From Sandarakinorhabdus cyanobacteriorum (GTDB lineage Bacteria > Pseudomonadota > Alphaproteobacteria > Sphingomonadales > Sphingomonadaceae): a DNA stretch of 34,310 nucleotides. The notes beneath the pieces are model-generated. The model saw only the letters and a program-made list of their open reading frames with translations. It was not told the origin of the DNA and made no database searches. The position numbers and the translations under genes are program-made. Shown in pieces: positions 337 to 30,843 of this stretch (positions are counted from its first letter, which is position 1; the number at the start of each line of letters is the position of its first letter). The stretch covers positions 1 to 34,310 of the forward strand of contig NZ_NOXT01000104.1 of the NCBI RefSeq assembly GCF_002251755.1, written 5' to 3'.

Positions 337-531
337 CTAGCGGCCTTGGCGAAGGGCAAGCGCAATCGCTTGCCGGAGCACCTCGGCATCTCCGATGTGG
401 TTGGCGAGGATGAGCAGCAGGCGGGCGTTGAGCGCGGCGCTGGCCTCGCCATCGAGGCCATCATGCATCGCGGTCAGCATGGTGAAGACCGCGTCCGGGT
501 CGGGCAGGTTGGGTTCGGTGACAAGCGGCAT
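337..531 (-). CDS. DUF2783 family small protein
   Basis: A 64-residue protein with no assigned function. Its central segment (about residues 22-50, containing GLDGEASAALNAR and ILANHIGD) matches what I recall of the DUF2783 family, whose members are often encoded directly after class A FAD monooxygenases. The start is the ATG at 531, which shares one base with the stop of the monooxygenase gene (TGATG), so translation is probably coupled. It may be a helper or stability partner of the monooxygenase, but that is inferred only from position. A longer in-frame start at 606 would overlap the upstream gene by 75 bases and adds an unconserved-looking arginine-rich leader, so it was rejected. This is the last gene of the operon. 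Confidence 0.75.
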   Translation of the reverse strand: MPLVTEPNLPDPDAVFTMLTAMHDGLDGEASAALNARLLLILANHIGDAEVLRQAIALALRQGR

Positions 532-2102
532 CAGGGCCCCCGGTTCATCGCTGTGGCCACCGCCCGGTGCACATCTGCCGCAGTGGCGGCGTGCCAACGC
601 GCGCACACGAGGCGATCGGGCCGTACCAGCACCGCACCGCCCACCGGCAAAGCATAGCGCTCAACGGCAATCGTGGCATGCTGAATATCAAGGCATCGCA
701 GATCGGGCAGGCCGGGATCGAACGGACCGTTGGACAGCAACGTGAACCCCTGACCGCAGTGCGCGAGAAGCCAGCCCGAACCCAAGGGCGCATCGATGGC
801 CGCGCAGCCGGGCGGCACGCCCTTGCTGCCCCAATCGTCCCGGTCGGGCGTGTTCAGGGCGCTGCCAACCAGCCGGGCGGGCGCGAACAGGCGGCCGCTG
901 TTGACCATGGCCCGGGCAAAGGCGGTGTCGTCCGCAAGGGCGAGCACGGCGTCGCGCAGACCGGTCGCGCCCGGGCTCCCGGGGCTGATGAAGTCGGTGG
1001 CGCGCGTCGAATGCCGGATATTCTCGTCCGCCGCGGCCACGGCCTCGTCGTTGTAGGTTTCGAGCAAGGCGCCGCCTGCCGTGCCACCGACCACGCGGTC
1101 GAGCTTCCAGGCCAGGTTGGCCACGTCGGCAAAGCCGCCGTTGCAGCCGCGCGCCCCAAAGGGCGAGACCAGGTGCGCGGCATCGCCAGCAAAGAGCACC
1201 CGGTCATGGACGAAACGGGCCATGCGCCGGCACTGGAACGCGTAGACCGAATACCAGACCCGGTCGTACGCGACGTGGGCGCCAAGCAGTCCACAAACCA
1301 GCGGATCGACGGCCTCGGGCCTGATGGCCGCCGCCCGATCGATGCCGGGACCAAGCTGGAAATCAAGACGCCAGACATCATCGGGCTGGCGGTGGAGCAA
1401 CGCAGTGCGCCCGGGATTGAAGGGCGGATCGAACCAGAACCAGCGTTCGCTTGGGAGGTCGGCCTTCAGCCGGATATCGGCAATCAGGAAATTGTCCTCG
1501 AACCCCCGGCCCTCGAAATCCAGCCCCATGCGCTGGCGGATCGTTGAGCGGCTGCCATCGCAGGCCACGACCCACGCCGCCCGCTGCGTATACGCCTGGC
1601 TGCCAACGTTGACCGTCAGCGTGACACCGTCCCCGCCCGGGGCAATGCCGGTGACCTCATGTCCCCAACGCAGCGCGACGTTGGGCAGCGCGTGCAGGCG
1701 CTCGACCAGCATCTCCTCGAGGAGATACTGCTGGAGATTGATGAAGGCCGGCATCTTCTGCTGCCGGACGGGCAAGAGGTCGAAGCTGTAGATGGGCGAT
1801 GCCTTGTCCTTCCAGAAGACCTTGCCGGTGTTCCAGGTCACGCCCCGGGCGACGGCCGCATCCCCAACGCCCAGCCGGTCCAGATACTCGAGCGAATGCT
1901 TGGCGTAGCAGATCGCCTTCGACCCGGCCGCAATAACGTCCAGCCGGTTGAGCACGACCACCCTGTGCCCCCGCTGGCCAAGGTCGATGGCCAGGGCGAG
2001 CCCCACCGGACCGCCGCCAACGATCACGATGGGGACGTCGCGGTCCTCCCGGCCTGGCAAGGGGGTCTGCCCGATCCCGCGCCACACCGGAATGCTGGTC
2101 AT
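531..2102 (-). CDS. Class A FAD-dependent aromatic monooxygenase
   Basis: About 523 residues, the usual size for the PheA/TfdB/MhpA group of single-component flavoprotein hydroxylases, which use FAD and NAD(P)H to hydroxylate phenolic rings. Visible motifs are the N-terminal dinucleotide-binding GGGPVG (about residue 30) with a beta-alpha-beta fold around it, the ACDGSRS motif (about 181-187) that contacts both FAD and NAD(P)H, and the LFAGDAAH motif (about 304-311) binding the FAD ribityl chain. The ATG at 2102 was preferred to the GTG one codon upstream, and AGGA precedes it. It lies 5 bases after the upstream metallo-hydrolase stop and overlaps the DUF2783 gene. The substrate cannot be read from sequence. 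A hydroxylated arylacetate or related phenol would fit the operon, for example a product of tyramine-type amines. Confidence 0.85.
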   Translation of the reverse strand: MTSIPVWRGIGQTPLPGREDRDVPIVIVGGGPVGLALAIDLGQRGHRVVVLNRLDVIAAGSKAICYAKHSLEYLDRLGVGDAAVARGVTWNTGKVFWKDKASPIYSFDLLPVRQQKMPAFINLQQYLLEEMLVERLHALPNVALRWGHEVTGIAPGGDGVTLTVNVGSQAYTQRAAWVVACDGSRSTIRQRMGLDFEGRGFEDNFLIADIRLKADLPSERWFWFDPPFNPGRTALLHRQPDDVWRLDFQLGPGIDRAAAIRPEAVDPLVCGLLGAHVAYDRVWYSVYAFQCRRMARFVHDRVLFAGDAAHLVSPFGARGCNGGFADVANLAWKLDRVVGGTAGGALLETYNDEAVAAADENIRHSTRATDFISPGSPGATGLRDAVLALADDTAFARAMVNSGRLFAPARLVGSALNTPDRDDWGSKGVPPGCAAIDAPLGSGWLLAHCGQGFTLLSNGPFDPGLPDLRCLDIQHATIAVERYALPVGGAVLVRPDRLVCARWHAATAADVHRAVATAMNRGP

Positions 2103-2107
2103 CACGC

Positions 2108-3067
2108 TCAGTCCTGCAGCTGCGCCCAGACGGCTCGGTCGAGCTCCATGGTCCAGATTTCGGGCCAGTCCTTGCCATCGAGCTCATCCCAGAGCCGCTT
2201 CACGTCAAAGGGCAGGCAATGCTCGAAGATGGGCCAGTGGCCGAACTTGGGCGCCAGCGCCGCGTGACAGGCGAGGAAGGCGTCCTTGAGGCTGCCGTTG
2301 CGGTCGCGCACCGCCTGGGTCTGATCGATCATGACCCGCAGGAACTCACGGGTCTGCGCAATCGCCTGGTCGCAGGCCTCCAGGCCCCTCGCCACCGCCC
2401 CGCGCCCGCCAATCAGCTGCGTCGCCCGGAAGGCCTGGACGCGATCGAGGGTGGCGCCGCTCCATTCACGGTGGAAGGCATCGCCCGTGTAGAGGGCAGC
2501 CTGCGCCTCGACGAGATCGCCGGCAAACAGCGTCTTGCTCCGCTCGTGCCACACCACGATGTCGCCGGCGGTGTGGCCACGACCACAGAAGACAAGGTCC
2601 AGGTGACCGCGGCGACCGCCCAGCTCGATCCGCATCGCCTGCTCGAAGGTCAGCGTCGGCCAGGTCAGCCCCGGGATCTCGTCGGGCTCCTTGAACAGGC
2701 GCGGCATGCGGCCAAACTCGCTGGCCCAGTCCTGCTGGCCGCGCTCGGCGATAAGTTGGCGTGTTGCCTCGCTGCTGACGATCACGTCGGCATCAAACGC
2801 GCTTGCGCCCAGCACGCGCACGGCGTGATAATGAGTGAGCACGAGGTAGCGCACGGGCTTGTCCGTGTGTTGCCGCAGCACGGCCAGCCAGTCCCGCGCC
2901 GCCGCCGGCGTGGCCCGCGCCTCGATGCACACCAGGAAGTCCTCGCCCTCGATGGCGCCGACATTGGGGTCGCCCTCGGCCGTGAAGGCGTAAATCCCGT
3001 CACCGAGGATTTCGAGGGTTTCCTTGCGGGGCGCAAGATCGGCAGATGAGGCAAAGGGCTTGGTCAC
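2108..3067 (-). CDS. MBL-fold hydrolase with altered metal motif
   Basis: A 319-residue cytoplasmic metallo-beta-lactamase-fold protein (no signal peptide). The strand that normally carries HxHxDH reads THYHAVRV (H79, H81, then V83 and R84), so the Asp and second His that bind the second metal are absent. The later ligands appear kept: H165 in GRGHTAGD and D184 in LFAGDL. I recall similar HYHAVRVLG proteins beside FAD monooxygenases and DUF2783 genes, so the change looks like a family trait and not damage. The start is a GTG at 3067 that overlaps the preceding stop (GTGA), with AGGA seven bases upstream. The reaction is unknown. A mononuclear metal hydrolase acting on a ring-oxidation product or thioester is possible. 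Confidence 0.75.
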   Translation of the reverse strand: MTKPFASSADLAPRKETLEILGDGIYAFTAEGDPNVGAIEGEDFLVCIEARATPAAARDWLAVLRQHTDKPVRYLVLTHYHAVRVLGASAFDADVIVSSEATRQLIAERGQQDWASEFGRMPRLFKEPDEIPGLTWPTLTFEQAMRIELGGRRGHLDLVFCGRGHTAGDIVVWHERSKTLFAGDLVEAQAALYTGDAFHREWSGATLDRVQAFRATQLIGGRGAVARGLEACDQAIAQTREFLRVMIDQTQAVRDRNGSLKDAFLACHAALAPKFGHWPIFEHCLPFDVKRLWDELDGKDWPEIWTMELDRAVWAQLQD

Positions 3068-3990
3068 GGCCGGTCCTGCGGGAGGTGGTTGATGAGGCTG
3101 TACTTCAGGAAGAAGTCGGCTTCCGCGTAGTCCGGGTAGAGGGCGGTTATGCGACGGGCCGCCTCCTCCCGGCTGCGCGCGCTGCGCACGATGACGAGAT
3201 AGTCATCGAAATAGCGGATCTGCGCATCCAGCATCTCGATGCCACCCGGATCGCCGTGCCCCGGATAGACGATGGGCTTGCGGGCCCCATAGGTTTGCCG
3301 GATCTTGACCAGTGCGGCCCGCCACGCCGTGACCCGGTCCAGCGTGATGTCATCGCCCATCCAGGGATGAACCTTGTTGTAGGCAAGGTCGGCCAGGAAC
3401 AGCGCGTTGATCGACGGGCAGTAGAGCGTGGCCATGTGCGGCGCTTCGGTGGCCTGATAATCCGTGGTCACCTGGCACTGGCCACCGCCATCAAAGCGCA
3501 GGGTTGATCCCTTCAGGAGGCCGATGGTCCGCTCGTAATCGAAACCACCGGGATTGCTGGGCGACTTGGGCCGCAAGGGCCGCTCCAGGGGCGTTTCCGC
3601 CTCGGTTGCGCCGCCCTGGTCCATGTAGACCGCATAGGCCTTCACGTCGCGGCGGATGGCCTCGTTCGCGACCCGGATGCGCGCGGCGGGATACTGGTCC
3701 CGGAACACGTGCATGCCCGTGAAATGATCGGTATGCCCGTGCGTGACGAACACCTGGGTCAGTGGCAACTTGAGCGCGCGGACGAGGTCGGCCAGCTTCT
3801 GGGCCTCGTAGCCCTTGCGCTGGACGTCGATGACCGTGAGCGTCTTGCCGTTCGAGATGATGAACGAGTTGACGGTGGCAAAGCCGCCTTTGTGGACGGT
3901 CACTTCGAGGTCTGCCGCCGCTGCCGGCGCACCAAGACCGGCCAGCGCAAACGCGGCGAGGAGGATCGGCCTACAGCGTCTTGAAATCAT
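3064..3990 (-). CDS. Exported MBL-fold metallo-hydrolase
   Basis: A 308-residue metallo-beta-lactamase-fold hydrolase with an N-terminal signal peptide (arginine-rich start, hydrophobic core, AAA cleavage region near residues 24-26), so it probably acts in the periplasm. The canonical HGHTDH motif is intact (about residues 84-89), unlike the next gene downstream. A further conserved segment near the C-terminus reads YPGHGDPGG. The ATG at 3990 was chosen over an upstream TTG at 4005. The ATG gives a normal signal peptide and overlaps the HD-domain gene's end by 20 bases. Its 3' end overlaps the next gene by four bases. The substrate is unknown; periplasmic relatives include hydrolases with very diverse substrates. 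Confidence 0.78.
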   Translation of the reverse strand: MISRRCRPILLAAFALAGLGAPAAAADLEVTVHKGGFATVNSFIISNGKTLTVIDVQRKGYEAQKLADLVRALKLPLTQVFVTHGHTDHFTGMHVFRDQYPAARIRVANEAIRRDVKAYAVYMDQGGATEAETPLERPLRPKSPSNPGGFDYERTIGLLKGSTLRFDGGGQCQVTTDYQATEAPHMATLYCPSINALFLADLAYNKVHPWMGDDITLDRVTAWRAALVKIRQTYGARKPIVYPGHGDPGGIEMLDAQIRYFDDYLVIVRSARSREEAARRITALYPDYAEADFFLKYSLINHLPQDRP

Positions 3991-4693
3991 CGGTTTGCGC
4001 CGCAAGGGTGCTCAGGTAGCGTTCAAGAAAGACGCGCCGTTCCGGCAGCATGGCCTTGCCTGCCGGCGACAGGATACGCGGCGGCACGGCCTGGAGAAAG
4101 GCCTGCAGTTGCCGAACCACGGCCGGTCCATCGGGGACCCCGCCGATGATCGTGCCGGTCAGGTCAACCGTGGCCGTGACCCGGGCAATCCCGATGGCCC
4201 CCAGCCAATCAAGGGAGTCGGCGTCATGGAAATAGAGGGCTTCGGGCCCGGCCGGCTCCCGGAAGAACATGTGGGTGCGCATCACGGCCTGGACCTTGGG
4301 GAGCTTTGCCATCGGAAAGCCGGTGTCGCGCAGCAGCCCTTCGGCCAACTCGACGGCCCGATCGGCGTGATCCACGTCCTTTTTCGCGTAGGCCGGGAAA
4401 GCGGCCGCATCATGCAAAAGCGCGGCCGCGAACAGGACGTCGTCGTCCACAACCGCCTTGTCCGCGGCCGCCAGCTGCAGGGAGAGGTTGTAGATCCGCA
4501 GGCTGTGGCTGTAGCCCCACGCCGGGTGCTTGAAGCTTGCCTGCGCGAACAGCTTCAGTTTCTCGCGCCAGGGCGCCGGCTGGGCGGCTGTCGCGGCCGC
4601 CGCGCCGGCAGTCTGGGCCAAGACGGGCGCGTGGCCGAGCGCGAGGTCGCCGGCCAAGAGCGTGGCGGTCAGCAACAGCACCTTGATCGTCAT
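3971..4693 (-). CDS. Exported HD-domain protein
   Basis: A 240-residue protein starting at the ATG at 4693, which overlaps the upstream stop as ATGA. Residues 1-27 look like a signal peptide (hydrophobic core ending near VLAQ). The rest carries HD-superfamily metal ligands: H63 in YSHSLRIYN, H94-D95 in ALLHDAAAF, H109, H141 and D159. HD proteins are usually cytoplasmic phosphohydrolases or hydratases (the cyanamide hydratase type has a similar HSLR...LLHD layout), so export is unusual. No nucleotide substrate is suggested by the surroundings; a hydrolytic or hydratase role on a catabolic intermediate is possible. An upstream extension to 4903 would lie inside the previous gene and was rejected. 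Confidence 0.72.
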   Translation of the reverse strand: MTIKVLLLTATLLAGDLALGHAPVLAQTAGAAAATAAQPAPWREKLKLFAQASFKHPAWGYSHSLRIYNLSLQLAAADKAVVDDDVLFAAALLHDAAAFPAYAKKDVDHADRAVELAEGLLRDTGFPMAKLPKVQAVMRTHMFFREPAGPEALYFHDADSLDWLGAIGIARVTATVDLTGTIIGGVPDGPAVVRQLQAFLQAVPPRILSPAGKAMLPERRVFLERYLSTLAAQTDDFKTL

Positions 4694-5799
4694 GCCAGCA
4701 GCTCCCGGGCAAGATCGTCCACCCATTGGTCCTGGAAGGCTTGCGCCCTGGGGCCGGGCTGCCAGAGGGAGAACATCTCCAGCTCCGGGTCTTCGACGCC
4801 CATGGTGGTACCGGCCAGCGCTTCGATCACGGCATGACCGCAGAACGGCACATAGGCCTCGGCATAACCCCCTTCGTGGATGACCGCCAAACGGCCCTGG
4901 CACAGCCGGTCCGCCGCACCCATCACCATCTGGGTCATCGCCCGATAGGTCTCGCTGTGCAGCATCATGCGCGCCAGCGGATCGACGGCGTTGGCATCAA
5001 GGCCGCTGGCCACCACGATCAGCTCCGGCTGGAACGCGTCGAGAGCGGGCAACACGATCCTTTCCATCGCGCGGATGTAGGTGGCATGGCCGGAGCCGGC
5101 CGGCAGCGGGATGTTGATGTTGGCGCCCAGCCCGTCACCGGCGCCGCGGTCGTCCGCACCACTGTACCCCGGCGGGAAGCAGCGATCCTGGTGGATCGAG
5201 ATGGTCAGCGTGTCGCCCCGCTCGTAATAGACGTGCTGCGTGCCATTGCCGTGATGCACGTCCCAATCGAGGATCGCCACCTTGCCCAGCCCATGCCGCG
5301 CGCGGGCCGCCTCGATCGCGATCGGGATGTTGCACAAGAGGCAGAAGCCCATCGGCATGTCGGGAAGGCAGTGGTGCCCGGCAGGACGGCAAAGGGCGTA
5401 GGCGTTGCGATACTGGCCGCTGATCACCCCATCAACGGCCGCGATGGCAAGGCCAGCCGAGATGCAGGCGATCTCAAAGCCACCCTTGCTGAACGGTGCC
5501 AACTGCCCGAGATCACCGCCGCCGGCGTCGCTGGTCGCCTTGAAGCGGTCGATGTATTCGGCCGGATGGATGCGCAGCAGGTCGTCCCGGGTGGCCGGGT
5601 CGGCCTTGGGCTGGACCAGGGCGTCGACCAGGCCGGACGCCTGCACGAGGTTGAGCACCCGGCGCTTGGAGTCCGGCGTGTCCGCGCCATAGGAACCGGT
5701 GGGTGGCTGCACCCACCGGTCCAGGGGAAAGTAGAGCGCCTGGACGCCCGTCGAGTGCCAGAAGCAGCGCTCGTTCTGAAAAAGAGCCGTTTGCGTCAT
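4690..5799 (-). CDS. Histone deacetylase-like amidohydrolase
   Basis: A 369-residue zinc-dependent deacetylase of the arginase/deacetylase fold, resembling bacterial class II histone-deacetylase-like and acetylpolyamine amidohydrolases. Visible active-site elements are the paired histidines in AGHHCLPD (H142, H143), the zinc ligands D180 and H182 in DWDVHHGNGT, the third ligand D268 in SGLDANAVDP, and the glycine-rich HEGGY loop near residue 317. Start choice: the ATG at 5799 has AAGGAG about ten bases upstream; a start at 5832 would overlap the upstream gene. The family removes acetyl or longer acyl groups from amines. Inside an amine-degrading operon, deacylation of an N-acylated arylethylamine or polyamine-like substrate is a reasonable inference. 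There is no signal peptide, so it acts in the cytoplasm. Confidence 0.87.
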   Translation of the reverse strand: MTQTALFQNERCFWHSTGVQALYFPLDRWVQPPTGSYGADTPDSKRRVLNLVQASGLVDALVQPKADPATRDDLLRIHPAEYIDRFKATSDAGGGDLGQLAPFSKGGFEIACISAGLAIAAVDGVISGQYRNAYALCRPAGHHCLPDMPMGFCLLCNIPIAIEAARARHGLGKVAILDWDVHHGNGTQHVYYERGDTLTISIHQDRCFPPGYSGADDRGAGDGLGANINIPLPAGSGHATYIRAMERIVLPALDAFQPELIVVASGLDANAVDPLARMMLHSETYRAMTQMVMGAADRLCQGRLAVIHEGGYAEAYVPFCGHAVIEALAGTTMGVEDPELEMFSLWQPGPRAQAFQDQWVDDLARELLA

Positions 5800-5806
5800 C
5801 GGGCGA

Positions 5807-7549
5807 TCACTCCTTGGAGCCTTGGGGCGCACGGCGCGCGAACACCCGCTCGCCCCGGATCCAGGTCTCGCGGGGCCGGATCAGGTGAAGGCTCGTGACC
5901 GCCACATCGAAGGGGTTGTCATCGAGGATGAGGAAATCGGCGGACTTGCCGGTCTCGATGGACCCGGCCTGCTTGACGATGCCGAGGTGCTTGGCGGCAT
6001 TGATTGTGAACATATCGATCGCCTGCGAGAGCGTTATGGCCTCGCCCAGCCCAAAGCTGCGTTCACTGCCGCCCGGATTGCGACGGGTGATGGCGGTCTC
6101 GATCCCGATCCAGGGGTCGGGCGTCGGCACCACGGCCCAGTCAGACCCGGCGATGACCAGCGCGTCATTGGCGAAGACGTCCTTGATCGGCCAGACCCGG
6201 TCGATGCGGGGTGGGCCGACAGCCGAGGTGATGTCGTCGTTGATCGGCTGGGGATCCCACAGGTAGGGCGACATCTCCACCGCGGCGTTGAGCGCCTTGA
6301 AGCGCGGCAGGTCCGCTTCGTCGACGAACGTCGAATGGCCGACATGATGGATGGGGCCGTTGGGGCCGTTGGCCTTGCGCGCGGCCTCGATGGCGTTGAG
6401 CGCCTCGCGCACCGACCGGTCGCCCGCCGCATGGAACATCACGACAATGCCCTGCTTGTCCCACTCAGTGACCAGCTTGCCCATCTGCGCCGGATCAAAC
6501 AGCAGCAGCCCGGTGGGCGGCGCGTTGGGCTGGCCGGCCTGGTACGGGGCGAGCATTGCGGCCGTGTGGCTCTCGGTCGGCACGCCGTCGGCGAACACCT
6601 TGATGCAATTGGGATCAAGGTTTCGGCGTGCGTAGCGGCCCCGTGCTGCCAACGTCTGCTCAAACGCCGGGTTGGGTCGGCCCGCTTCCGAGAACGCGAT
6701 GCAGCCACGCACGCGCTGCTTCAGCAATGCCTTGTCGGCCAGCGAGGCATAGACCTCGAGGTCGTCCCGGTAGACCATGGCGTCGACATGCCCGACCACG
6801 CCGTAGCCCGCGAGCATGGCGAGGTTCTGCTGCAATCGGCGGGCGGTCTCCGCCTGGGGTTGGGGCGGCAGCTTGCTCGTCACCAGCCGGCCCGCGGTCT
6901 CGCGCAGAATCCCGGTCGGTTTGCCGGCCGCGTCCCGCTCGATGATGCCACCTTCTGGGTTGGGCGTGTCCGCCGTGATTCCCGCCAGTTCCAGCGCCTT
7001 CGAATTGGCCCAGATGCTGTGGCCGCTGACGTCAAACAGCATCAGCGGATTGTTCGGCGACACCGCGTCCAACGTGGCAGCCGTTATGGGGGTGCCTTCC
7101 AGGAGCGAGGCCTGCCATTGCGCGCCCGTCACCCATTCCCCCGGCTTGGCCGCCTTCACGCAATCGGCGACAAGCGCGAGCAGGCGCTTGGCGTCTGCAT
7201 CCTGCGGAATCCGGCAGCGCCCCTCTCCGCCCTTGGCCTGCAGCACCGGATGGACATGCATGTCGTACAGGCCGGGAAGAACGGTCGCGCCTTTCAGGTC
7301 GATGACCCGGCTCGCCGTGCGCCGCCAGGCCGACGCCTGGGCGGGACCGCCAAGGCCCGCGATGCGCTCGCCCTCCACCCGCATCGCGCTGCGCCAACCG
7401 GTCGGGGTGTAGATCCGGCCGTTGACGAAGAGAACGCTGGCCTCGCGGCTGGTGCCGCCCTGCCCCGCCGCCCCGGCCGGCGAAGCGGCCAGGATGGCAA
7501 GGGCCGCCGCAGCGGCGGCCATCGTGCTGGTCAGGAAAGCGGATGTCAT
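5807..7549 (-). CDS. Exported amidohydrolase (YtcJ/amidohydrolase-3 type)
   Basis: A 580-residue metal-dependent hydrolase of the amidohydrolase superfamily with an alanine-rich signal peptide (residues 1-28), implying a periplasmic location. Motifs include HVH (H98, H100) in LYDMHVHP, the PTESHTAAML segment, FHAAGD, HHVGHSTF and the late AGSDW aspartate motif, followed by a family-typical C-terminal strand domain. The start at 7549 has AAAGGAG seven bases before it; the open frame to 7699 runs into the neighbouring receptor gene. This subfamily includes N-substituted formamide deformylase (NfdA), which releases arylalkylamines from their formamides. Release of a free amine for the TTQ dehydrogenase is therefore an attractive inference. 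A close paralogue lies at 9989-11740. Confidence 0.86.
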   Translation of the reverse strand: MTSAFLTSTMAAAAAALAILAASPAGAAGQGGTSREASVLFVNGRIYTPTGWRSAMRVEGERIAGLGGPAQASAWRRTASRVIDLKGATVLPGLYDMHVHPVLQAKGGEGRCRIPQDADAKRLLALVADCVKAAKPGEWVTGAQWQASLLEGTPITAATLDAVSPNNPLMLFDVSGHSIWANSKALELAGITADTPNPEGGIIERDAAGKPTGILRETAGRLVTSKLPPQPQAETARRLQQNLAMLAGYGVVGHVDAMVYRDDLEVYASLADKALLKQRVRGCIAFSEAGRPNPAFEQTLAARGRYARRNLDPNCIKVFADGVPTESHTAAMLAPYQAGQPNAPPTGLLLFDPAQMGKLVTEWDKQGIVVMFHAAGDRSVREALNAIEAARKANGPNGPIHHVGHSTFVDEADLPRFKALNAAVEMSPYLWDPQPINDDITSAVGPPRIDRVWPIKDVFANDALVIAGSDWAVVPTPDPWIGIETAITRRNPGGSERSFGLGEAITLSQAIDMFTINAAKHLGIVKQAGSIETGKSADFLILDDNPFDVAVTSLHLIRPRETWIRGERVFARRAPQGSKE

Positions 7550-11994: not shown

Positions 11995-11998
11995 CGCT

Positions 11999-21902: not shown

Positions 21903-22511
21903 ATGGCACGAACGCAAGCGGCCGATTACGAAGAGCGCAAGGAGGCGATCCTCGACCACGCAGCCCGGCTGTTCGCCACGCAGGGCTTTCTCGGCACCTC
22001 GATCATGGACATCGCGCGCGCGTGCGGCGCCTCGAAGTCGCTGCTGTATCATTACTTCCCGTCGAAGGAAGACGTGCTGTACGGCGTGATGAACTCGCAC
22101 ATCGACGTGCTGTTGCACGATATCGAGCAGGTCGCCCAAAGCCGCCAGGAACCGGCTGACGCGCTGCACAGCCTCCTGGAGTTGTTCATGCGGGATTACG
22201 CGGGAGCTGCGTCCCGCCAGAAGGTCCTGCTCAACGAGATGCGCAACCTGCCGGAGGACAAGCGCACCGAAATCGTGGGCAAGCAGCGCCAGATCGTGGC
22301 GGCCGTCCAGGCCCTCCTGGCCGCGGCCATGCCGGCCACGACCGACGACCCGGTGCGCATGCGCGCGCGCACCATGCTGCTCTTTGGCATGATCAACTGG
22401 ACCAGCAACTGGTTCAGGCCGGGCGGGCCGCTGTCCTCGTCCGATATTGCGGACATGGCCTTTGAACTGGCCCTCGGCGGCCAGGGCACCCGCCCGCCCC
22501 GCGGGGCCTGA
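21903..22511 (+). CDS. paaR: TetR-family regulator, PaaR candidate
   Basis: A 202-residue TetR/AcrR protein. The helix-turn-helix lies at about residues 14-60 (AILDHAARLFATQGF, then IMDIARACGASKSLLYHYF), followed by a C-terminal domain typical of the PaaR-like group (NEMRNLPEDKR and the TMLLFGMINWTSNWF segment). It is convergent with paaE, 17 bases away. Known from other bacteria: TetR-type PaaR represses paa genes and is released by phenylacetyl-CoA. Two matching palindromes before paaA and between paaI and paaG (see 26180 and 27940) are the likely targets. The start at 21903 was chosen so that the protein begins just before the HTH; an in-frame start at 21837 would add 22 residues. Confidence 0.82.
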   Translation: MARTQAADYEERKEAILDHAARLFATQGFLGTSIMDIARACGASKSLLYHYFPSKEDVLYGVMNSHIDVLLHDIEQVAQSRQEPADALHSLLELFMRDYAGAASRQKVLLNEMRNLPEDKRTEIVGKQRQIVAAVQALLAAAMPATTDDPVRMRARTMLLFGMINWTSNWFRPGGPLSSSDIADMAFELALGGQGTRPPRGA

Positions 22512-22528: not shown

Positions 22529-23605
22529 TCAACCGTCGAAGTCGATCTCGACGTCGTCGGTCACCGGGATGGCCTGGCAGGTCAGCACGTAGCCGTCGGC
22601 AATGTCGGCATCGCTGAGGCCGAAGCGGCGAACCATCTCCACCTTGCCGCTGACCACGCGTCCCCGGCAGGTGGCGCACACACCGGCCTTGCACGAGAAC
22701 GGGGCCGGCAAGCCGGCGGCACGGGCGTTGTCGAGAATGGAGCCCAGCGCCGGGTCAAAGGTGAGCGTGCGCCGACGGCCATCAATGCGCACGCGGATCG
22801 GCTTGCCGGCGGCCTGCCGCTCGAGGCGGGAAACCGCCTCCTTCTGCTCGGAGCTCAATTCGCTGGCGGTGAAGCGCTCGGTGAGGATGCGATCCGGCCC
22901 CATCCCGGCCTTCACCAGGCCGGTTTCGACCGCCGCCATCATGTCCTCGGGACCACAGATGAACGCCCGGTCGATTGCCTCGGCCGGCAGCAGACGGTCA
23001 AGGATCTGCTCGACCTTGGCCGCATCAATGCGGCCATTCAGGATTTCGAGGTCGTCCTCTTCCCGCGACAGGAAATGATGCACCTGGAGCCGGTCGAGAT
23101 ACAGGTTCTTGAGCTGGGCGATCTCCTCGCGGAAGATGATGTTGTTGGTGTCGCGGTTGCCATAGAACAGCGCAAAATGGCTGCCCGGTTCCGTTGCTAG
23201 CCCCGTCTTGAGCAGCGACAGGATCGGCGTGATCCCCGAACCACTGGCAAACATCGCGTACTGGGCCTGGCGCGCCGGATCGAACGACCAGGTAAACGCG
23301 CCGGTTGGCGGCATCACGTCCAGCGTGGCGCCCGAGACCAGGTTGTCGTTGGCCCAGTTCGAGAAGCGCCCGCCAGGCACACGCTTGATGGCGATGCACA
23401 GGCCTTCATCGGACGGCACCGAGCAGATCGAGTAGCTGCGGCGAACATCCTCTCCAGCGATTTGCGCGCGGACAGTCACATGCTGGCCGGGGTGGAACCG
23501 GTAGGCGTCGGCCAGGGGGGCCGGCACCGCCAGGCGCACCGCGATCGCCTCGGGGGTCTCGTGCCAGACGCTGGCGATGGCAAGCCGATGAAATCCGGTC
23601 GACAT
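22529..23605 (-). CDS. paaE: Phenylacetyl-CoA epoxidase reductase subunit PaaE
   Basis: A 358-residue reductase that passes electrons from NAD(P)H through FAD and a 2Fe-2S cluster to the PaaA diiron site. Domains in order: FAD-binding barrel (RRSYSICSVP near residue 55), NAD-binding domain (FASGSGITPILSLLKT and YGNRDTNNIIF), and a C-terminal plant-type ferredoxin domain with cluster ligands C305, C310, C313 and C343. The start at 23605 has AGGAG six bases upstream and lies just after the paaD stop. An earlier in-frame start at 23725 would lie inside paaD and was rejected. This is the last gene of paaABCDE. Confidence 0.95.
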   Translation of the reverse strand: MSTGFHRLAIASVWHETPEAIAVRLAVPAPLADAYRFHPGQHVTVRAQIAGEDVRRSYSICSVPSDEGLCIAIKRVPGGRFSNWANDNLVSGATLDVMPPTGAFTWSFDPARQAQYAMFASGSGITPILSLLKTGLATEPGSHFALFYGNRDTNNIIFREEIAQLKNLYLDRLQVHHFLSREEDDLEILNGRIDAAKVEQILDRLLPAEAIDRAFICGPEDMMAAVETGLVKAGMGPDRILTERFTASELSSEQKEAVSRLERQAAGKPIRVRIDGRRRTLTFDPALGSILDNARAAGLPAPFSCKAGVCATCRGRVVSGKVEMVRRFGLSDADIADGYVLTCQAIPVTDDVEIDFDG

Positions 23606-23613
23606 GAGGGCTC

Positions 23614-24087
23614 CTAATGGCATTTGAACCGATCGAACGGTTCGTGACAGGCAAGGCAGCGCCACAACGCCTTGCAGGGCGTCGATCCAAAGCGGGACAC
23701 CTCGGCCGTCTGTCGCGAGCCGCACCGCGGGCAGGCGACCTCAGGACTGGCCGGCTCGGGCGGCGCAATCCCGTACCGCCGGAGCTTTTCCCGGCCGTCC
23801 TCGGTAATCATGTCGGTCGACCAGGCGGGTGACAACACGATGCGCAGATCCACGTGACCAAGCCCGCCCTGGTCGAGCGCGTCCCGCGTGGCTTGCTTGA
23901 TGACCGCCGTGGCCGGGCACCCGGTGTAGGTGGGCGTCAGGGAAACCCAGCTGCCGTTCGCATCGTGCCCGATGTCACGGACGATCCCCAGGTCCACGAT
24001 CGAGACGACCGGGATCTCGGGGTCGGGCACCCGCGCGAGGACCTCGGCAATCTGCTGGCTGAGGTCCCGCGGCGCCATGTCTGCCAT
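23614..24087 (-). CDS. paaD: Phenylacetyl-CoA epoxidase assembly protein PaaD
   Basis: A 157-residue protein with an N-terminal MIP18/DUF59 domain (VPDPEIPVVSIVDLGIVRDI, about residues 19-38, and PTYTGCPAT near 52-60) and a C-terminal zinc-ribbon-like segment with CPRCGS, then CxxC in WRCLACHEPF and a final C. Members are thought to help assemble or repair metal sites of the epoxidase. Start choice: ATG at 24087 was taken; a GTG at 24096 and an ATG at 24078 are alternatives. It follows paaC closely and its stop is eight bases before paaE. Confidence 0.93.
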   Translation of the reverse strand: MADMAPRDLSQQIAEVLARVPDPEIPVVSIVDLGIVRDIGHDANGSWVSLTPTYTGCPATAVIKQATRDALDQGGLGHVDLRIVLSPAWSTDMITEDGREKLRRYGIAPPEPASPEVACPRCGSRQTAEVSRFGSTPCKALWRCLACHEPFDRFKCH

Positions 24088-24099
24088 GCCCGCCACCGG

Positions 24100-26216: not shown

Positions 26217-27416
26217 TCAAACGCGCTCGATCGCCACGGCTATCCCCTGCCCGACGCCAATGCACATCGTGCACAGGGCACGGCGACCACCGCTGTTCAG
26301 AAGCTCCTGCGCCGCGGCCATGACCAGGCGCGCGCCTGACATGCCGAGCGGGTGACCGAGGGCGATGGCGCCACCGTTCGGGTTCACGTGCGCACTGTTG
26401 TCCGCGAGCCCGAGTTGCCGCAGCACCGCAAGACCCTGAGCCGCGAAGGCCTCGTTGAGTTCAACGACGTCCATGTAGCCAATGCCAAGGCCAAGTCGTT
26501 CCAGCAGCTTCAGGCTGGCTGGCGCCGGGCCGATTCCCATGATGCGCGGCGCCACGCCGGCGACCGCGCAGCCCAGGACTCGGGCACGGGGCACCAGGCC
26601 ATGGCGCTCGACGGCCCGCTTGCTGGCCACGATGATGGCGGCTGCGCCATCGTTGACACCGCTGGCGTTGCCGGCGGTGACCGTGCCCTGGGGCTTCACG
26701 ATCGGCCGCAGTCGCGCCAGTGCATCCAGCGAGGTCTCGCGCGGGTGCTCGTCCTGGTCCACCGTCACGGTCTCGCCCTTGCGGCCCGGGATGGAGACCG
26801 GAACAATCTCCTGGGCAAAGCGGCCCTTCGCCTGGGCGGCCGCGGCCCGACGCTGGCTTTCCATCGCAAAGGCGTCCTGGTCGGCGCGGCTGACACCGAA
26901 CTCCTCGGCCACGTTCTCGGCCGTCTCCGGCATGGAATCGATACCGTAGCTTGCCTTGAGGCGGTCATTGACGAAGCGCCAGCCGATCGTCGTGTCATAG
27001 ACCGCCGTTGTCCGCGAAAAAGCCGCATCGGCCTTTGGCATGACGAACGGCGCCCGGGTCATCGACTCGACACCCCCCGCGATAATCAGGTCCGCCTCCC
27101 CGGCCTTGATGGCCCGGGCTGCCATGGCCACGGCGTCCATGCCCGACCCGCACAGGCGGTTGATCGTGGTGCCCGGGGCCGACTCGCCAAACCCGGACAG
27201 CAGAGCCGCCATGCGGGCAACGTTCCGGTTGTCCTCACCCGCCTGGTTCGCACAGCCAAGGAGGACATCGTCGACAGCGCTGACGAGGCCGGGATTGCGT
27301 GCCACAAGCGCCGCGAGCGGGACAGCCGCCAATTCGTCGGCACGAACGCTGGCCAGGGCACCGCCATACCGACCGATCGGCGTGCGGGCAGCGTCACAGA
27401 GAAAGGCATCAAGCAT
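26217..27416 (-). CDS. paaJ: Beta-ketoadipyl-CoA-type thiolase
   Basis: A 399-residue thiolase with all catalytic elements: the nucleophile C89 in INRLCGSGMDA, NEAFAAQ, H355 in GHPLGMSGAR and C385 in CTMCIGVGQG. In the paa pathway the thiolase cleaves 3-oxo-5,6-dehydrosuberyl-CoA and 3-oxoadipyl-CoA to yield acetyl-CoA and finally succinyl-CoA. Sequence alone cannot separate PaaJ from PcaF, but the position between paaI and paaA supports PaaJ. The ATG at 27416 is three bases after the paaI stop, with GGAG nine bases upstream. Confidence 0.9.
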   Translation of the reverse strand: MLDAFLCDAARTPIGRYGGALASVRADELAAVPLAALVARNPGLVSAVDDVLLGCANQAGEDNRNVARMAALLSGFGESAPGTTINRLCGSGMDAVAMAARAIKAGEADLIIAGGVESMTRAPFVMPKADAAFSRTTAVYDTTIGWRFVNDRLKASYGIDSMPETAENVAEEFGVSRADQDAFAMESQRRAAAAQAKGRFAQEIVPVSIPGRKGETVTVDQDEHPRETSLDALARLRPIVKPQGTVTAGNASGVNDGAAAIIVASKRAVERHGLVPRARVLGCAVAGVAPRIMGIGPAPASLKLLERLGLGIGYMDVVELNEAFAAQGLAVLRQLGLADNSAHVNPNGGAIALGHPLGMSGARLVMAAAQELLNSGGRRALCTMCIGVGQGIAVAIERV

Positions 27417-27995: not shown

Positions 27996-28787
27996 ATGGG
28001 CTATGAGACCATCATTCTGAACATCGAGCATGGCGTCGGGAGCGTCACGCTCAATCGTCCCGACCGGCTGAACAGTTTCACCGTGCAGATGCACAAGGAG
28101 CTTGCCGACGCCCTCGACCGCATTGAGGCCGATTCGGCGGTGCGTTCGGTATTGCTGACTGGCGCTGGCCGTGGCTTCTGCGCCGGGCAGGACCTTGCCG
28201 ACCGCGCCGTGGCGCCGGGACAGGAGGCCGTCGACCTCGGCCATTCGGTAGAGACCTATTATTCGCCCCTGATCCGCCGGCTGGCGACCATGGATCGCCC
28301 GGTGGTGTGCGCCGTCAATGGCGTTGCCGCCGGCGCCGGGGCGAACATCGCGTTCGCCTGCGACGTGGTGATCGCCGCCCGCAGCGCCAAGTTCATCCAG
28401 TCCTTCGCCAACATCGGTCTCATCCCAGACTCGGGCGGCACCTGGGTGTTGCCACGGCTGGCCGGGCAGGCACGCGCGCTTGGGCTCGCGCTCACCGGCG
28501 AACCCTTGCCAGCCGAACGCGCCGAACAGTGGGGCATGATCTGGAAATGCGTCGACGATGCCGAACTGATCGGCGAAGTGCAGGCCCTCGCCCGGCGTTT
28601 TGCCGAAGGCCCGACCCGCGGCCTGGTGGCGACCAAGCAGTCCCTGCGCACGTCGTTTGGCCGGACCCTCGACGAGTCACTCGCGCTCGAACGCGACCTG
28701 ATGCGCGAACTGGGCCGGAGCGATGATTATCGCGAAGGCGTGGCGGCCTTCACCGAGAAGCGCCGTCCCAATTTCACCGGCAAGTGA
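27996..28787 (+). CDS. paaG: 1,2-epoxyphenylacetyl-CoA isomerase PaaG
   Basis: A 263-residue crotonase-fold enzyme that isomerises the epoxide of phenylacetyl-CoA to oxepin-CoA and also shifts a double bond later in the pathway. Signature strings: GRGFCAGQDLADR (oxyanion-hole region, about residues 58-70), NGVAAGAGANIAFACD (108-123) and FANIGLIPDSGGTW (137-150) with the catalytic-type D145. GGGGAGG precedes the ATG. It is followed after 31 bases by paaZ and is expressed from the divergent promoter that carries a PaaR-type site. Confidence 0.95.
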   Translation: MGYETIILNIEHGVGSVTLNRPDRLNSFTVQMHKELADALDRIEADSAVRSVLLTGAGRGFCAGQDLADRAVAPGQEAVDLGHSVETYYSPLIRRLATMDRPVVCAVNGVAAGAGANIAFACDVVIAARSAKFIQSFANIGLIPDSGGTWVLPRLAGQARALGLALTGEPLPAERAEQWGMIWKCVDDAELIGEVQALARRFAEGPTRGLVATKQSLRTSFGRTLDESLALERDLMRELGRSDDYREGVAAFTEKRRPNFTGK

Positions 28788-28818
28788 CCCAAAACCCCAA
28801 GGCTCGATGGAGGCCGCG

Positions 28819-30843
28819 ATGACCAAGAGATTGCTCAACTACGCGAAGGACGCATGGGTGGCGGGGGCTGGCGCCGCCGTTCCCGTGGTCTCGGCGATCA
28901 GCGGCGAAACCGTCGCTGTTGTGGGCAGTGACGGCCTCGATTTTGCGGGCATGCTCGAACACGCCCGGACGGTGGGTGGACCGGCCCTGCGCGCCATGAA
29001 CTTCCACGAGCGCGGCGGGATGCTGAAGGCCCTCGCCCAGGCCATCATGAACCGCAAGGAGGAGCTGTACGAACTGTCGGCCCAGACGGGCGCGACCCGC
29101 AATGACGGCTGGATCGACATCGAAGGCGGTGCCGGCACCTTCTTCACCATGGCCTCCAAGGCCCGCCGGGAACTTCCGGCCGACGTGGTCATTGTCGATG
29201 GCGAACACGAGGTGCTCGGCAAGACGGGCAGTTTCATCGGCCAGCACGTCTACACGTCGCTTCAGGGCTGCGCAGTCCAGATCAACGCCTTCAATTTCCC
29301 GGTCTGGGGCATGCTCGAGAAGCTCGGGCCTGCCCTGCTGGCGGGCATGCCAGCCATCGTGAAGCCGGCTACAGCCACAGCCCAGGTCGCCGAGCAGGCC
29401 GTTCGCATCATGATCGAGGCCGGCGTGCTGCCCAAGGGCGCCTTGCAGCTGGTTGTGGGTTCGCTAGGCGACACCCTCGATCATCTGACCTGCCAGGACG
29501 TGGTGTCTTTCACCGGCTCGGCGGCAACGGCCATCAAGCTGCAATCCCATCCCGTCATGGCACGGGAGTCCGTCCGCTTCGTGGCCGAACGGGACTCGAT
29601 CAACGCCTGCGTCCTTGGGCCCGACGCGACACCGGACGCCCCGGAATTCGACCTCTTCGTGAAGGAGGTCGTGCGGGAAATGACCGTCAAGGCGGGCCAG
29701 AAATGCACCGCCATCCGGCGCGCGTTCGTCCCAAGGGCGCTGATGGACGCCGCCCAGCAGGCACTGGCGGCCCGCCTGTCGAAGGTCGTCGTGGGTGACC
29801 CCGCGCAGGACGGCGTGACGATGGGCGCCCTCGTCAGCCTATCGCAGCGCGCCGATGTGCGCGACGCGGCGCGCGCCCTGGCCGGCGAATGCACGCTTGC
29901 CTGGGGCAGCATCGACACGGTGGAGGCCAAGGGCGACGCAGACCGCGGCGCCTTCCAGTCCCCGCTCCTGTTCCGCAATGACCAGCCGTGGCAGGCGCAG
30001 CATGTGCATGACGTGGAGGCCTTTGGCCCCGTCTGCACGCTGATGCCCTATGCCGATGTCGAGGACGCCATTGCGCTGTGCAATCGCGGCAAGGGTTCGC
30101 TGGCCCTGTCCGTGTTCACCTACCAGCCGGAAACGGTGCGCGCGTTCGTGTTGGGCAGTGGCGCCTTGCACGGGCGCATGGTGTTCGTTGATCGGGACAG
30201 CGCCAAGGAGTCGACCGGTCATGGGTCCCCCTTGCCGATGCTTATCCACGGCGGTCCCGGCCGTGCCGGTGGCGGCGAGGAAATGGGCGGCGTGCGGGGA
30301 GTGAAGCATTACATGCAACGCTCGGCCCTGCAGGCCCATCCGCGGATGATTGGCCACGTCATTGGCCAGTGGCTGCCGGGCGTTCCCCAGCCCTCGGGCG
30401 AGGCCCATCCGTTCCGCAAGCGGTTCGGTGAACTGGACTTGGGGTACACGCTCCACACTGCCGCGCGCACCATCACGCTCGCCGATGTTGAGCACTTCGC
30501 CGAGTTCACCGGTGACAATTTCTACGCGCACATGGACGAAGTGGCCGCGGCGGCAAGCCCGATCTTTGGAGGCCGGGTGGCGCACGGCTATCTCATCCTG
30601 TCCTTTGCGGCCGGCCTGTTCGTTGACCCGGCGCCGGGCCCGGTGCTGGCCAACTTCGGCCTCGAGCACCTGCGCTTCATCAAGCCGGTCAAGCCCGGCG
30701 ACAGCATCAAGGTTGCGCTCACGGCCAAAGCGAAATCGCTCCGGACTGCCGACATGGGCGAAGTCCGCTGGGCCGTGGCCGTGACCAACCAGGACGATGA
30801 ACTGGTCGCCGCCTACGACCTGCTCACGATGAACGCGGTGTAG
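28819..30843 (+). CDS. paaZ: Bifunctional oxepin-CoA hydrolase/aldehyde dehydrogenase PaaZ
   Basis: A 674-residue fusion close to the 681 residues of the E. coli enzyme. The N-terminal aldehyde dehydrogenase domain has E257 in VAERDSIN and the nucleophile C296 in GQKCTAIRR. The C-terminal MaoC-type hotdog domain has D566 and H571 in TGDNFYAHMDE, which open the oxepin ring. The two domains together produce 3-oxo-5,6-dehydrosuberyl-CoA. The start at 28819 has GGAGG six bases upstream; an earlier in-frame start at 28723 would overlap paaG by 65 bases. All four catalytic residues appear intact, so no truncation is indicated. Confidence 0.96.
   Translation: MTKRLLNYAKDAWVAGAGAAVPVVSAISGETVAVVGSDGLDFAGMLEHARTVGGPALRAMNFHERGGMLKALAQAIMNRKEELYELSAQTGATRNDGWIDIEGGAGTFFTMASKARRELPADVVIVDGEHEVLGKTGSFIGQHVYTSLQGCAVQINAFNFPVWGMLEKLGPALLAGMPAIVKPATATAQVAEQAVRIMIEAGVLPKGALQLVVGSLGDTLDHLTCQDVVSFTGSAATAIKLQSHPVMARESVRFVAERDSINACVLGPDATPDAPEFDLFVKEVVREMTVKAGQKCTAIRRAFVPRALMDAAQQALAARLSKVVVGDPAQDGVTMGALVSLSQRADVRDAARALAGECTLAWGSIDTVEAKGDADRGAFQSPLLFRNDQPWQAQHVHDVEAFGPVCTLMPYADVEDAIALCNRGKGSLALSVFTYQPETVRAFVLGSGALHGRMVFVDRDSAKESTGHGSPLPMLIHGGPGRAGGGEEMGGVRGVKHYMQRSALQAHPRMIGHVIGQWLPGVPQPSGEAHPFRKRFGELDLGYTLHTAARTITLADVEHFAEFTGDNFYAHMDEVAAAASPIFGGRVAHGYLILSFAAGLFVDPAPGPVLANFGLEHLRFIKPVKPGDSIKVALTAKAKSLRTADMGEVRWAVAVTNQDDELVAAYDLLTMNAV

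What the first reader, a model, noticed from the sequence alone, without database searches (positions are those of the whole stretch)
337..30843. Apparent complete route from conjugated arylethylamine to ring cleavage in adjacent gene blocks
One operon joins two TonB receptors, two exported amidohydrolases, an HDAC-like amidohydrolase, a TTQ amine dehydrogenase with two cytochromes c, an aldehyde dehydrogenase and PaaK; directly beside it lies the paaABCDE/I/J/G/Z regulon. The enzyme families are established; the linked route (uptake, deacylation, periplasmic oxidation, CoA ligation, epoxidation) is inference. I know of the aau enzymes and the paa pathway separately, but not of this receptor-amidohydrolase-TTQ-paa package.
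Basis: partly seen in the sequence, partly recalled or inferred. Interest (0 to 1): 0.78.

Follow-up and report, generated by a model that had tools for sequence, protein, structure and literature searches.

The report
Regulated cluster degrading acylated phenylethylamine-type compounds
This stretch of a bacterial genome carries what looks like a complete, co-regulated set of genes for taking up amide-bound phenylethylamine-like molecules, freeing the amine and burning it through phenylacetate, and it suggests a natural job for two enzymes so far known mainly for breaking down pesticides.

Summary
The package is real biology: 25 of 30 window genes recur as adjacent blocks in Niveispirillum lacus (another order), and aau recurs beside the hydrolases in five sphingomonad-type genomes, where MBL and HD share one reading frame. 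A palindrome, TCGAA-N4-TTCGA, lies between TetR1 and its divergent neighbour in 11 of 11 such gaps held, once in the window's 3.5-Mb genome, and beside prpH of strain Y57. The HDAC-like gene belongs to the PrpH/DmhA (propanil/dimethoate hydrolase) family; the Y57 aau-cluster copy is ~96% DmhA. The genome's only PaaK over cut-off is in this operon. Best reading: uptake, deacylation, TTQ oxidation to arylacetaldehyde, then arylacetyl-CoA and epoxidation. Substrate inferred, not shown. Against a strict linear route: HDAC lacks a signal peptide; two aau-HDAC genomes lack paa; only 1 of 31 TTQ loci read in the order sample has HDAC adjacent. Parts known; assembly apparently undescribed.

The parts
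337..531 (-). DUF2783 small protein (64 aa), candidate MhaB-like coupling protein
   Evidence: PF10932, 84.3 bits vs cut-off 25
531..2105 (-). FAD monooxygenase, PRK08132 subfamily, MhaA-like
   Evidence: NF006002 653 bits; FAD_binding_3; beside MBL and a DUF2783-like gene in other loci
2108..3067 (-). MBL-fold hydrolase without signal peptide (MBLa), partner of the monooxygenase
   Evidence: Lactamase_B; PDB 8d2z 294 bits; paired with FMO in G006, G036, L110, L113, L119
3064..4005 (-). exported MBL-fold hydrolase (MBLb); probable start near 3990
   Evidence: Lactamase_B; signal-like N-terminus; in one reading frame with HD in five genomes (three aligned)
3971..4693 (-). exported HD-domain protein
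   Evidence: PF01966; signal-like N-terminus; His-Asp residues invariant in 7 sequences
4690..5832 (-). HDAC-like amidohydrolase of the PrpH/DmhA family, RPAGHH motif; probable start near 5799, no signal peptide
   Evidence: PDB 9gku propanil hydrolase 623 bits, 9gkw dimethoate hydrolase 610; motif
5807..7549 (-). exported Amidohydro_3 amidohydrolase (AmhA)
   Evidence: PF07969; N-terminus
7600..9915 (-). TonB-dependent receptor 2
   Evidence: Plug and barrel
9989..11740 (-). exported Amidohydro_3 amidohydrolase (AmhB)
   Evidence: PF07969; N-terminus
11740..11991 (-). LuxR-type HTH mini-ORF (83 aa)
   Evidence: GerE 34.3 bits
11999..12298 (-). EthD-family protein
   Evidence: TIGR02118 103 bits
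12321..13634 (-). phenylacetate-CoA ligase PaaK, the only one over cut-off in the genome
   Evidence: TIGR02155 697 bits vs 646
13604..15013 (-). aldehyde dehydrogenase; best NCBIfam models aminobutyraldehyde DH and StyD, both below cut-off
15045..15500 (-). cytochrome c 2 (follows light chain)
   Evidence: Cytochrom_C 24 bits; found after AauA in most loci compared
15503..16015 (-). TTQ amine dehydrogenase light chain (AauA), twin-arginine-like leader
   Evidence: PF02975; PDB AADH 163 bits, MADH 154 or less; both TTQ Trp aligned
16036..16722 (-). MauD-like thioredoxin
   Evidence: TIGR02661 183.4 vs cut-off 188.6
16644..17171 (-). MauE-like membrane protein
   Evidence: PF07291
17175..18320 (-). 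TTQ amine dehydrogenase heavy chain (AauB)
   Evidence: PF06433; PDB AADH 168 bits, MADH 160
18327..18782 (-). cytochrome c 1
   Evidence: Cytochrom_C 41 bits
18782..20971 (-). TonB-dependent receptor 1, first gene of the run
   Evidence: Plug and barrel
20991..21004 (.). predicted TetR1 operator TCGAATTTTTTCGA
21099..21770 (+). TetR1 regulator, divergent from TBDR1; probable start
   Evidence: TetR_N; homologues in the same place
21837..22511 (+). TetR2, candidate PaaR
   Evidence: TetR_N, TetR_C_24; position
22529..23725 (-). PaaE
   Evidence: TIGR02160 409.8 vs 420.8
23614..24096 (-). PaaD
   Evidence: TIGR02159
24100..24864 (-). PaaC
   Evidence: TIGR02158
24861..25142 (-). PaaB
   Evidence: TIGR02157
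25158..26144 (-). PaaA, single copy in the genome
   Evidence: TIGR02156
26180..26203 (.). palindrome TTAATCGACCGGTCGGTCAATTAA, candidate PaaR site
26217..27416 (-). PaaJ/PcaF thiolase
   Evidence: TIGR02430
27420..27899 (-). PaaI thioesterase
   Evidence: TIGR02286
27944..27955 (.). second site, TTGACCGACCGG, shared with 26188-26199
27996..28787 (+). PaaG
   Evidence: TIGR02280
28723..30843 (+). PaaZ
   Evidence: TIGR02278
30912..32870 (+). exported CehA/McbA-like metallohydrolase
   Evidence: NF038032 162 bits, no Pfam match; 52% homologue beside hydrolases and paa in G416

Best explanation
A dedicated catabolic system for N-acylated (amide-bound) arylethylamines. Two TonB receptors bring the amide across the outer membrane; exported metallohydrolases (two Amidohydro_3 proteins, and the MBL and HD proteins that form one reading frame in relatives) release the amine in the periplasm; a second, cytosolic HDAC-like amidase of the PrpH/DmhA family deals with amides or acylated products that enter the cell. 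The TTQ amine dehydrogenase oxidises the free arylethylamine in the periplasm to the arylacetaldehyde, handing electrons to the operon's cytochromes c. The aldehyde enters the cell, aldehyde dehydrogenase and PaaK give phenylacetyl-CoA, and PaaABCDE/G/Z/J open the ring. TetR1 represses the run through TCGAA-N4-TTCGA; TetR2 (PaaR-like) controls paa through another palindrome. Shown by sequence: gene content, conserved synteny, a shared palindrome, a single PaaK over cut-off. Inferred: the substrate class, repression, all reaction steps and the order uptake-deacylation-oxidation.
For: Gene families. N. lacus carries 25 of the 30 query genes as the same adjacent blocks, 53-84% identical. Y57, R. 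histidinilytica, S. microcystinivorans, a Sphingosinicella MAG and Root720 pair aau with HDAC, AmhB, MBL-HD and AmhA; TBDR2 follows in four and ALDH with a second TetR1 in three of the five (contigs end first in the others); S. microcystinivorans also has PaaK there. The palindrome lies in 11 of 11 TetR1-TBDR1 or TetR1-ALDH gaps held; 18 distinct places (13 in those gaps, 5 elsewhere) against mean 1.5, maximum 7 for 59 permuted palindromes; one place in the window genome. Sole PaaK over cut-off and sole PaaA of the genome lie here. HDAC is PrpH/DmhA family: Y57 has PrpH itself (identical to 9gku over 369 residues) beside a related ALDH, TetR1 and palindrome, and a DmhA-like protein inside aau. 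DmhA is reported active on acetaminophen, an N-acetyl arylamide (PMC11887370 passages), and held octanoate in its tunnel (PMC11532494 passages). Arylacetate context recurs: an Agrobacterium HDAC/ALDH pair lies among hpa genes; MBL-FMO-DUF2783 lies within about 6 kb of hmgA-fahA-maiA in 3 of 3 loci inspected.
Against: No signal peptide on HDAC. No inner-membrane carrier for the aldehyde or acid recognised in the run. S. flavalba and S. formosensis have aau+HDAC without a PaaA match or a PaaK over cut-off. Three Novosphingobium genomes with this aau clade have no HDAC match. Novosphingobium genomes carry the hydrolase set beside a PQQ dehydrogenase instead of aau. In the order sample 1 of 31 TTQ loci read (of 53) has HDAC adjacent, so linkage is confined to one TTQ clade. 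TTQ heavy chain scores AADH and MADH almost alike. Window and N. lacus are sisters in both trees, so their shared paa adjacency counts once. Whole-genome counts of the palindrome are near the reversed-pattern control in several genomes.
Confidence: 0.6

Rival explanations
1. Two or three neighbouring systems: aau+ALDH+PaaK+paa burns free arylethylamines, while the receptor-hydrolase cassette handles unrelated amides, esters or xenobiotics and only happens to travel with it.
For: The hydrolase cassette occurs apart from aau, with a PQQ dehydrogenase, in Novosphingobium; the aau clade occurs without HDAC in other Novosphingobium genomes, and on pNL2 with catechol genes.
Against: Same palindrome and TetR1 family in front of both operons in Y57, S. 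microcystinivorans and Root720; one single-strand run in the window; N. lacus keeps the same order.
Confidence: 0.18
2. The true substrate is a larger natural product (plant hydroxycinnamoyl amide, peptide or alkaloid) with several hydrolysable bonds; each of the five or six hydrolases cuts a different bond and the arylethylamine is one fragment.
For: Two TonB receptors and several different metallohydrolases, five of them with export-like N-termini (AmhA, AmhB, HD, MBLb, CehA); EthD as an extra; MBL-HD in one frame.
Against: No glycoside- or peptide-specific enzyme recognised among the genes called; the cassette composition varies between genomes. It is a variant of the best reading rather than its opposite.
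Confidence: 0.14
3. Hydroxylated arylethylamines (tyramine, 3-hydroxy- or dihydroxyphenylethylamine) are the main substrates, with the MBL-FMO-DUF2783 trio making homogentisate or a related diphenol.
For: Trio within about 6 kb of hmgA-fahA-maiA in 3 of 3 loci inspected of 52 matching plasmid records, and FMO with MBLa beside aau and PaaK in Gammaproteobacteria MAGs; MhaAB is a flavoprotein plus a 60-aa partner (PMC3053370 passages).
Against: No hmgA match at E<=0.001 in the 99.95%-complete window genome; an intact paaABCDE set and a PaaK are present.
Confidence: 0.1

Closest known systems
aau cluster of Alcaligenes faecalis (aromatic amine dehydrogenase; gene order recalled, no call)
   Same: aauB-E-D-A order followed by a small cytochrome c gene; both TTQ tryptophans aligned with the solved AADH light chain
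   Different: TonB receptors, hydrolases, ALDH, PaaK and paa are joined to it here; heavy chain only marginally closer to AADH than to MADH
paa phenylacetate pathway
   Same: paaABCDE, G, Z, J, I present, all but PaaE over curated cut-offs
   Different: PaaK sits in the amine operon; no PaaH equivalog over cut-off in the genome
PrpH propanil hydrolase and DmhA dimethoate hydrolase (HDAC-like, cluster 1b)
   Same: 71% identical to Y57 PrpH, 68% to the DmhA-like protein of Y57, and the RPAGHH variant
   Different: Reported activities are on pesticides and acetaminophen; here the gene is in an arylalkylamine cluster
N-substituted formamide deformylase (NfdA) type amidohydrolases
   Same: AmhA 47% to plasmid proteins annotated nfdA (one record) or amidohydrolase; annotation only
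   Different: Export-like N-terminus here and linked to TonB receptors; activity untested
MhaAB 3-hydroxyphenylacetate 6-hydroxylase
   Same: Large FAD protein plus a ~60-aa partner; relatives near hmgA
   Different: No hmgA match in this genome; direct sequence comparison with P. putida U MhaA not made

Membership tests
TTQ aromatic amine dehydrogenase (AADH) | Light chain with both TTQ tryptophans and the cysteine pattern | tested here: met
   Aligned with 2agl_D without loss of the two Trp (residue roles recalled)
TTQ aromatic amine dehydrogenase (AADH) | Closer to AADH than to methylamine dehydrogenase | tested here: inconclusive
   Light chain 163 vs 154 bits, heavy chain 168 vs 160
TTQ aromatic amine dehydrogenase (AADH) | Oxidises arylethylamines | not testable with these tools
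   needs enzyme assay
Methylamine dehydrogenase (mau) system | NCBIfam MADH light and heavy chain equivalogs | tested here: not met
   153 vs cut-off 197 and 172 vs cut-off 454
Methylamine dehydrogenase (mau) system | MauG maturation enzyme | tested here: not met
   No TIGR03791 match over cut-off in 6 of 6 genomes; none at E<=0.001 in 3 of 6, N. lacus included; the window genome has a 119-bit match, cut-off 444
paa phenylacetyl-CoA epoxidase pathway | paaABCDE, paaG, paaZ, paaK | tested here: met
   PaaE slightly under cut-off
paa phenylacetyl-CoA epoxidase pathway | paaF and paaH beta-oxidation genes | tested here: not met
   PaaH equivalog not over cut-off in the genome; paaF not searched
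PrpH/DmhA small-molecule HDAC-like amidases | Catalytic motifs and RPAGHH in place of RPPGHH | tested here: met
   window plus 16 homologues at 62-81% all have RPA, 11 of 11 at 46-53% have RPP; but a Rhizobium homologue at 64% has RPP
PrpH/DmhA small-molecule HDAC-like amidases | Hydrolysis of propanil, dimethoate or other small amides | not testable with these tools
   needs assay
MhaAB hydroxylase | FAD protein plus small coupling protein, adjacent hmgABC | tested here: inconclusive
   FAD protein and a small DUF2783 partner present; no hmgA match in the genome

The most novel reading that the evidence does not exclude
A previously undescribed, TetR1-controlled regulon (operator TCGAA-N4-TTCGA) in alphaproteobacteria scavenges N-acyl arylethylamines through TonB receptors, a suite of exported hydrolases that includes a new MBL-HD composite amidase, and a MauG-independent TTQ dehydrogenase; DmhA and PrpH are its native deacylases, later selected on pesticides, and the whole package has moved between orders.
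Probability: 0.38. Interest if true: 0.76.

Novelty: new variant of a known kind. Interest (0 to 1): 0.6.

Why it matters
It turns a list of neighbours into a testable regulon: a conserved palindrome, a conserved regulator and a recurring gene set. It proposes a natural role for the pesticide hydrolases PrpH and DmhA; the authors of PMC11532494 propose that DmhA has additional, yet undefined substrates (passages). It shows an export-type HD protein in one reading frame with an MBL hydrolase, a combination whose reaction is unknown to me. It also points to genomes in which a TTQ enzyme seems to be matured without MauG.

Tried and rejected
FMO trio as a homogentisate route for tyramine in this host: weakened because hmgA gave no match in the genome, though relatives of the trio do sit near hmgA. 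One regulon for aau and paa: not supported; the palindromes differ. 'RPA motif marks every homologue above 62% identity': rejected as a general rule by the Rhizobium protein at 64% with RPP. The palindrome alone as a genome-wide regulon finder: weak; in five of six genomes whole-genome counts are 1.2 to 4 times the reversed-pattern control and in the window genome 1 against 2, so only its position is telling. Nine paper searches listed no paper whose title or opening abstract describes this package; most was noise from the prefixes 'aaua' and 'aaub', and the library lacks most subscription papers. Synteny in the order sample was read at 31 of 53 non-window TTQ places; the other 22 were not fetched. 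In N. lacus 40-80 kb of a 90-kb contig was read.

Full report
What is there. The window is a whole contig of a 3.53-Mb genome of the sphingomonad family (its family f1 includes Novosphingobium and S. flavalba genomes). On the minus strand runs TBDR1 - cytochrome c1 - AauB - MauE - MauD - AauA - cytochrome c2 - aldehyde dehydrogenase - PaaK - EthD - LuxR-HTH mini-ORF - AmhB - TBDR2 - AmhA - HDAC-like - HD - MBLb - MBLa - FAD monooxygenase - DUF2783 (20971 down to 337). On the other side lie TetR1 and TetR2, then paaE-D-C-B-A, paaJ, paaI, and divergently paaG, paaZ and a CehA-like metallohydrolase. N-termini of AmhA, AmhB, HD, MBLb, CehA, the cytochromes and both dehydrogenase subunits read like export signals; HDAC, MBLa, ALDH and PaaK do not (by eye; no predictor was run).

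Conservation. A scan of named genomes with the AauB clade gave 38 loci. The 30 window proteins of my first gene list (which lacked DUF2783 and the mini-ORF) were compared with their flanks. Niveispirillum lacus (Rhodospirillales) has 25 of 30 in the same adjacent blocks (paaE-A, J, I / G, Z / TetR1 / TBDR1 to PaaK / AmhB-TBDR2-AmhA-HDAC-HD-MBLb), 53-84% identical, with the paa block turned round; TetR2 and EthD have a homologue a few kb away; MBLa, FMO and CehA were not found in the 40 kb read. Five further genomes (Y57, R. histidinilytica, S. microcystinivorans, a Sphingosinicella MAG, Root720) have the aau block head-on to HDAC-AmhB-(HD/MBLb)-AmhA; TBDR2 follows in four of them and ALDH with a second TetR1 in three (Y57, S. 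microcystinivorans, Root720); PaaK is in the S. microcystinivorans cluster. In these five MBLb and HD match one open reading frame (three aligned). S. flavalba and S. formosensis have HDAC with aau but not the rest. So HDAC lies by aau in 8 of the 38 loci (several of the 38 are short or cut). AauB and HDAC trees both put window and N. lacus together with full support; as they belong to different orders, transfer of the package is likely, and their shared paa adjacency is one event.

Unbiased sample. In 396 genomes of the order, the TTQ light chain occurs in 43, an HDAC homologue at E<=1e-60 in 21, 12 of them with TTQ (31 of the other 375; Fisher 8.5e-8), and an AmhA homologue at E<=1e-100 in 15, 9 with TTQ (34 of 381; 2.9e-6). 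Relatedness is not controlled. Four non-window genomes have an HDAC at >=62% and four have AmhA at >=59%; all carry TTQ (1.1e-4 each; three genomes are common to both sets, so these are not independent). Against this, of 31 TTQ loci read (of 53), one has HDAC adjacent (G285, the same genome as S. flavalba) and two have MBLa-FMO (G006, G036). Among 21 genomes of named loci, 11 hold an HDAC at 62% or more and four, three Novosphingobium among them, hold no match. The package belongs to one TTQ clade, not to TTQ enzymes at large.

Regulation. The TBDR1-TetR1 gap holds TCGAATTTTTTCGA (20991-21004). The pattern TCGAA-N4-TTCGA lies in the TetR1 gap of all seven aau clusters with TetR1 beside TBDR1 (window, N. 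lacus, Y57, R. histidinilytica, S. microcystinivorans, Sphingosinicella MAG, Root720) and of all four ALDH-TetR1 gaps held (Y57, S. microcystinivorans, Root720, and beside prpH in Y57). Eighteen distinct places were found in 2.68 Mb of loci, 13 of them in these gaps and 5 elsewhere, against mean 1.5 and maximum 7 for 59 permuted palindromes; the loci were chosen for these clusters, and near-relatives count apart. It was not found beside the more distant TetR1 homologues of S. formosensis (39%) or of the second HDAC loci of R. histidinilytica and Root720 (33-34%); in S. flavalba it lies between a dehydrogenase and a transporter gene near aau. Whole genomes hold 1 place in the window genome (reversed-pattern control 2) and 6, 12, 10, 16 and 16 in N. 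lacus, Y57, S. microcystinivorans, Root720 and R. histidinilytica (controls 5, 10, 6, 4, 8), so the site is telling by position, not by number. The paa gaps carry a different palindrome around GACCGGTC (26180-26203, 27944), and N. lacus has TTGACCGGTCA before paaG (sequence read).

The HDAC-like enzyme. Its nearest solved relatives are propanil hydrolase 9gku (623 bits) and dimethoate hydrolase 9gkw (610 bits). Strain Y57, from which prpH was cloned (reference list of PMC11532494, seen), holds a protein identical to 9gku over 369 residues, on a 6-kb contig between a TonB receptor and ALDH-TetR1. The HDAC inside Y57's aau cluster matches 9gkw at 828 bits; I count 15 differences in 369 in the printed alignment, about 96% identity. 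PMC11532494 (passages) reports that DmhA and PrpH replace the second proline of RPPGHH by alanine, have weak or almost no lysine deacylase activity, and that DmhA crystals held octanoic acid, so further substrates are proposed. The window enzyme and 16 homologues at 62-81% have RPAGHH; 11 at 46-53% have RPPGHH; outside this group the EMRT-2 plasmid protein (66-67%) has RPA, but Rhizobium (64%), Agrobacterium (58%) and Leisingera (54%) have RPP and Martelella (54%) RPS. In Agrobacterium CFBP7129 the HDAC with an ALDH 59% like the window's lies among hpa genes, a separate arylacetate context; the Rhizobium, Leisingera and Martelella loci show no such context that I could recognise.

Why an arylethylamine. 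PaaK here is the only one over cut-off in the genome and PaaA is single, so the pathway's entry ligase is built into the amine operon. N. lacus likewise has one PaaK over cut-off, in the cluster; S. microcystinivorans has two, one in the cluster; Y57, R. histidinilytica and Root720 have PaaK and PaaA elsewhere; S. flavalba and S. formosensis have no PaaA match and no PaaK over cut-off. MBL-FMO-DUF2783 is a second C6-C2 marker: it lies within about 6 kb of hmgA-fahA-maiA in 3 of 3 plasmid loci inspected (of 52 records), and FMO with MBLa lies beside aau and PaaK in Gammaproteobacteria MAGs. MhaAB, 3-hydroxyphenylacetate 6-hydroxylase, has a flavoprotein and a 60-aa partner (PMC3053370 passages). 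Yet hmgA gave no match in the window genome, so this branch is unexplained.

Mechanism and limits. The best reading is in the section Best explanation; shown are content, order, palindrome and copy number, all else is inference from families. The weak joints are the cytosolic place of HDAC, the unknown reactions of HD and MBLb, the missing carrier for the aldehyde or acid, and the AADH/MADH ambiguity of the heavy chain. Related clusters pair the same hydrolases with a PQQ dehydrogenase in Novosphingobium, and pNL2 pairs TonB-aau with amidase, Rieske dioxygenase and catechol genes: the modules are exchanged, which fits a family of routes for different amides.

Verdict. I class it as a new variant of a known kind. 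Nine paper searches listed no description of it in the held open-access library; I saw listings, and passages of three papers (PMC11532494, PMC11887370, PMC3053370).

Noticed in passing
window genome and N. lacus, S. microcystinivorans, S. flavalba: No MauG over cut-off in any of six genomes with a TTQ light chain, and no match at E<=0.001 in three, so the cofactor seems to be matured by another route.
   Followed up: partly
L099:16773-18299, L140:1768-3294, L141:18496-19992: The exported MBL and HD proteins of the window lie in one reading frame in relatives; the reaction is unknown.
   Followed up: partly
L148 (G416, Gammaproteobacteria MAG): CehA-like - TBDR2 - MBLb - two AmhB-like - HDAC (RPP) - HD directly beside paaABCDE, I and J, with aau, PaaK, ALDH, MBLa and FMO on another contig.
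   Followed up: partly
L168, L143, L145: Novosphingobium carries TBDR2-AmhA-PQQ dehydrogenase-(HD)-AmhB-HDAC: the same hydrolases with another periplasmic quinoprotein; L152 looks alike by position only.
   Followed up: partly
L174: Agrobacterium plasmid with HDAC-like amidase and ALDH inside a hydroxyphenylacetate (hpa) gene cluster.
   Followed up: partly
L135 (Y57, 6-kb contig): prpH lies between a TonB receptor and an ALDH-TetR1 pair with the same palindrome pattern as the aau operon.
   Followed up: yes
window 33668-34297, minus strand: ORF that reads to me like the C-terminal part of a serine recombinase (no Pfam match), suggesting a mobile-element border at the contig end.
   Followed up: no
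L172: NfdA-like amidohydrolase, 47% to AmhA, between two IS1071 transposase genes on a plasmid of linuron-soil Variovorax WDL1.
   Followed up: no
L132 about 10450-12000: Between paaI and paaG N. lacus holds an extra stretch that may encode a 3-hydroxyacyl-CoA dehydrogenase (paaH); not searched.
   Followed up: no
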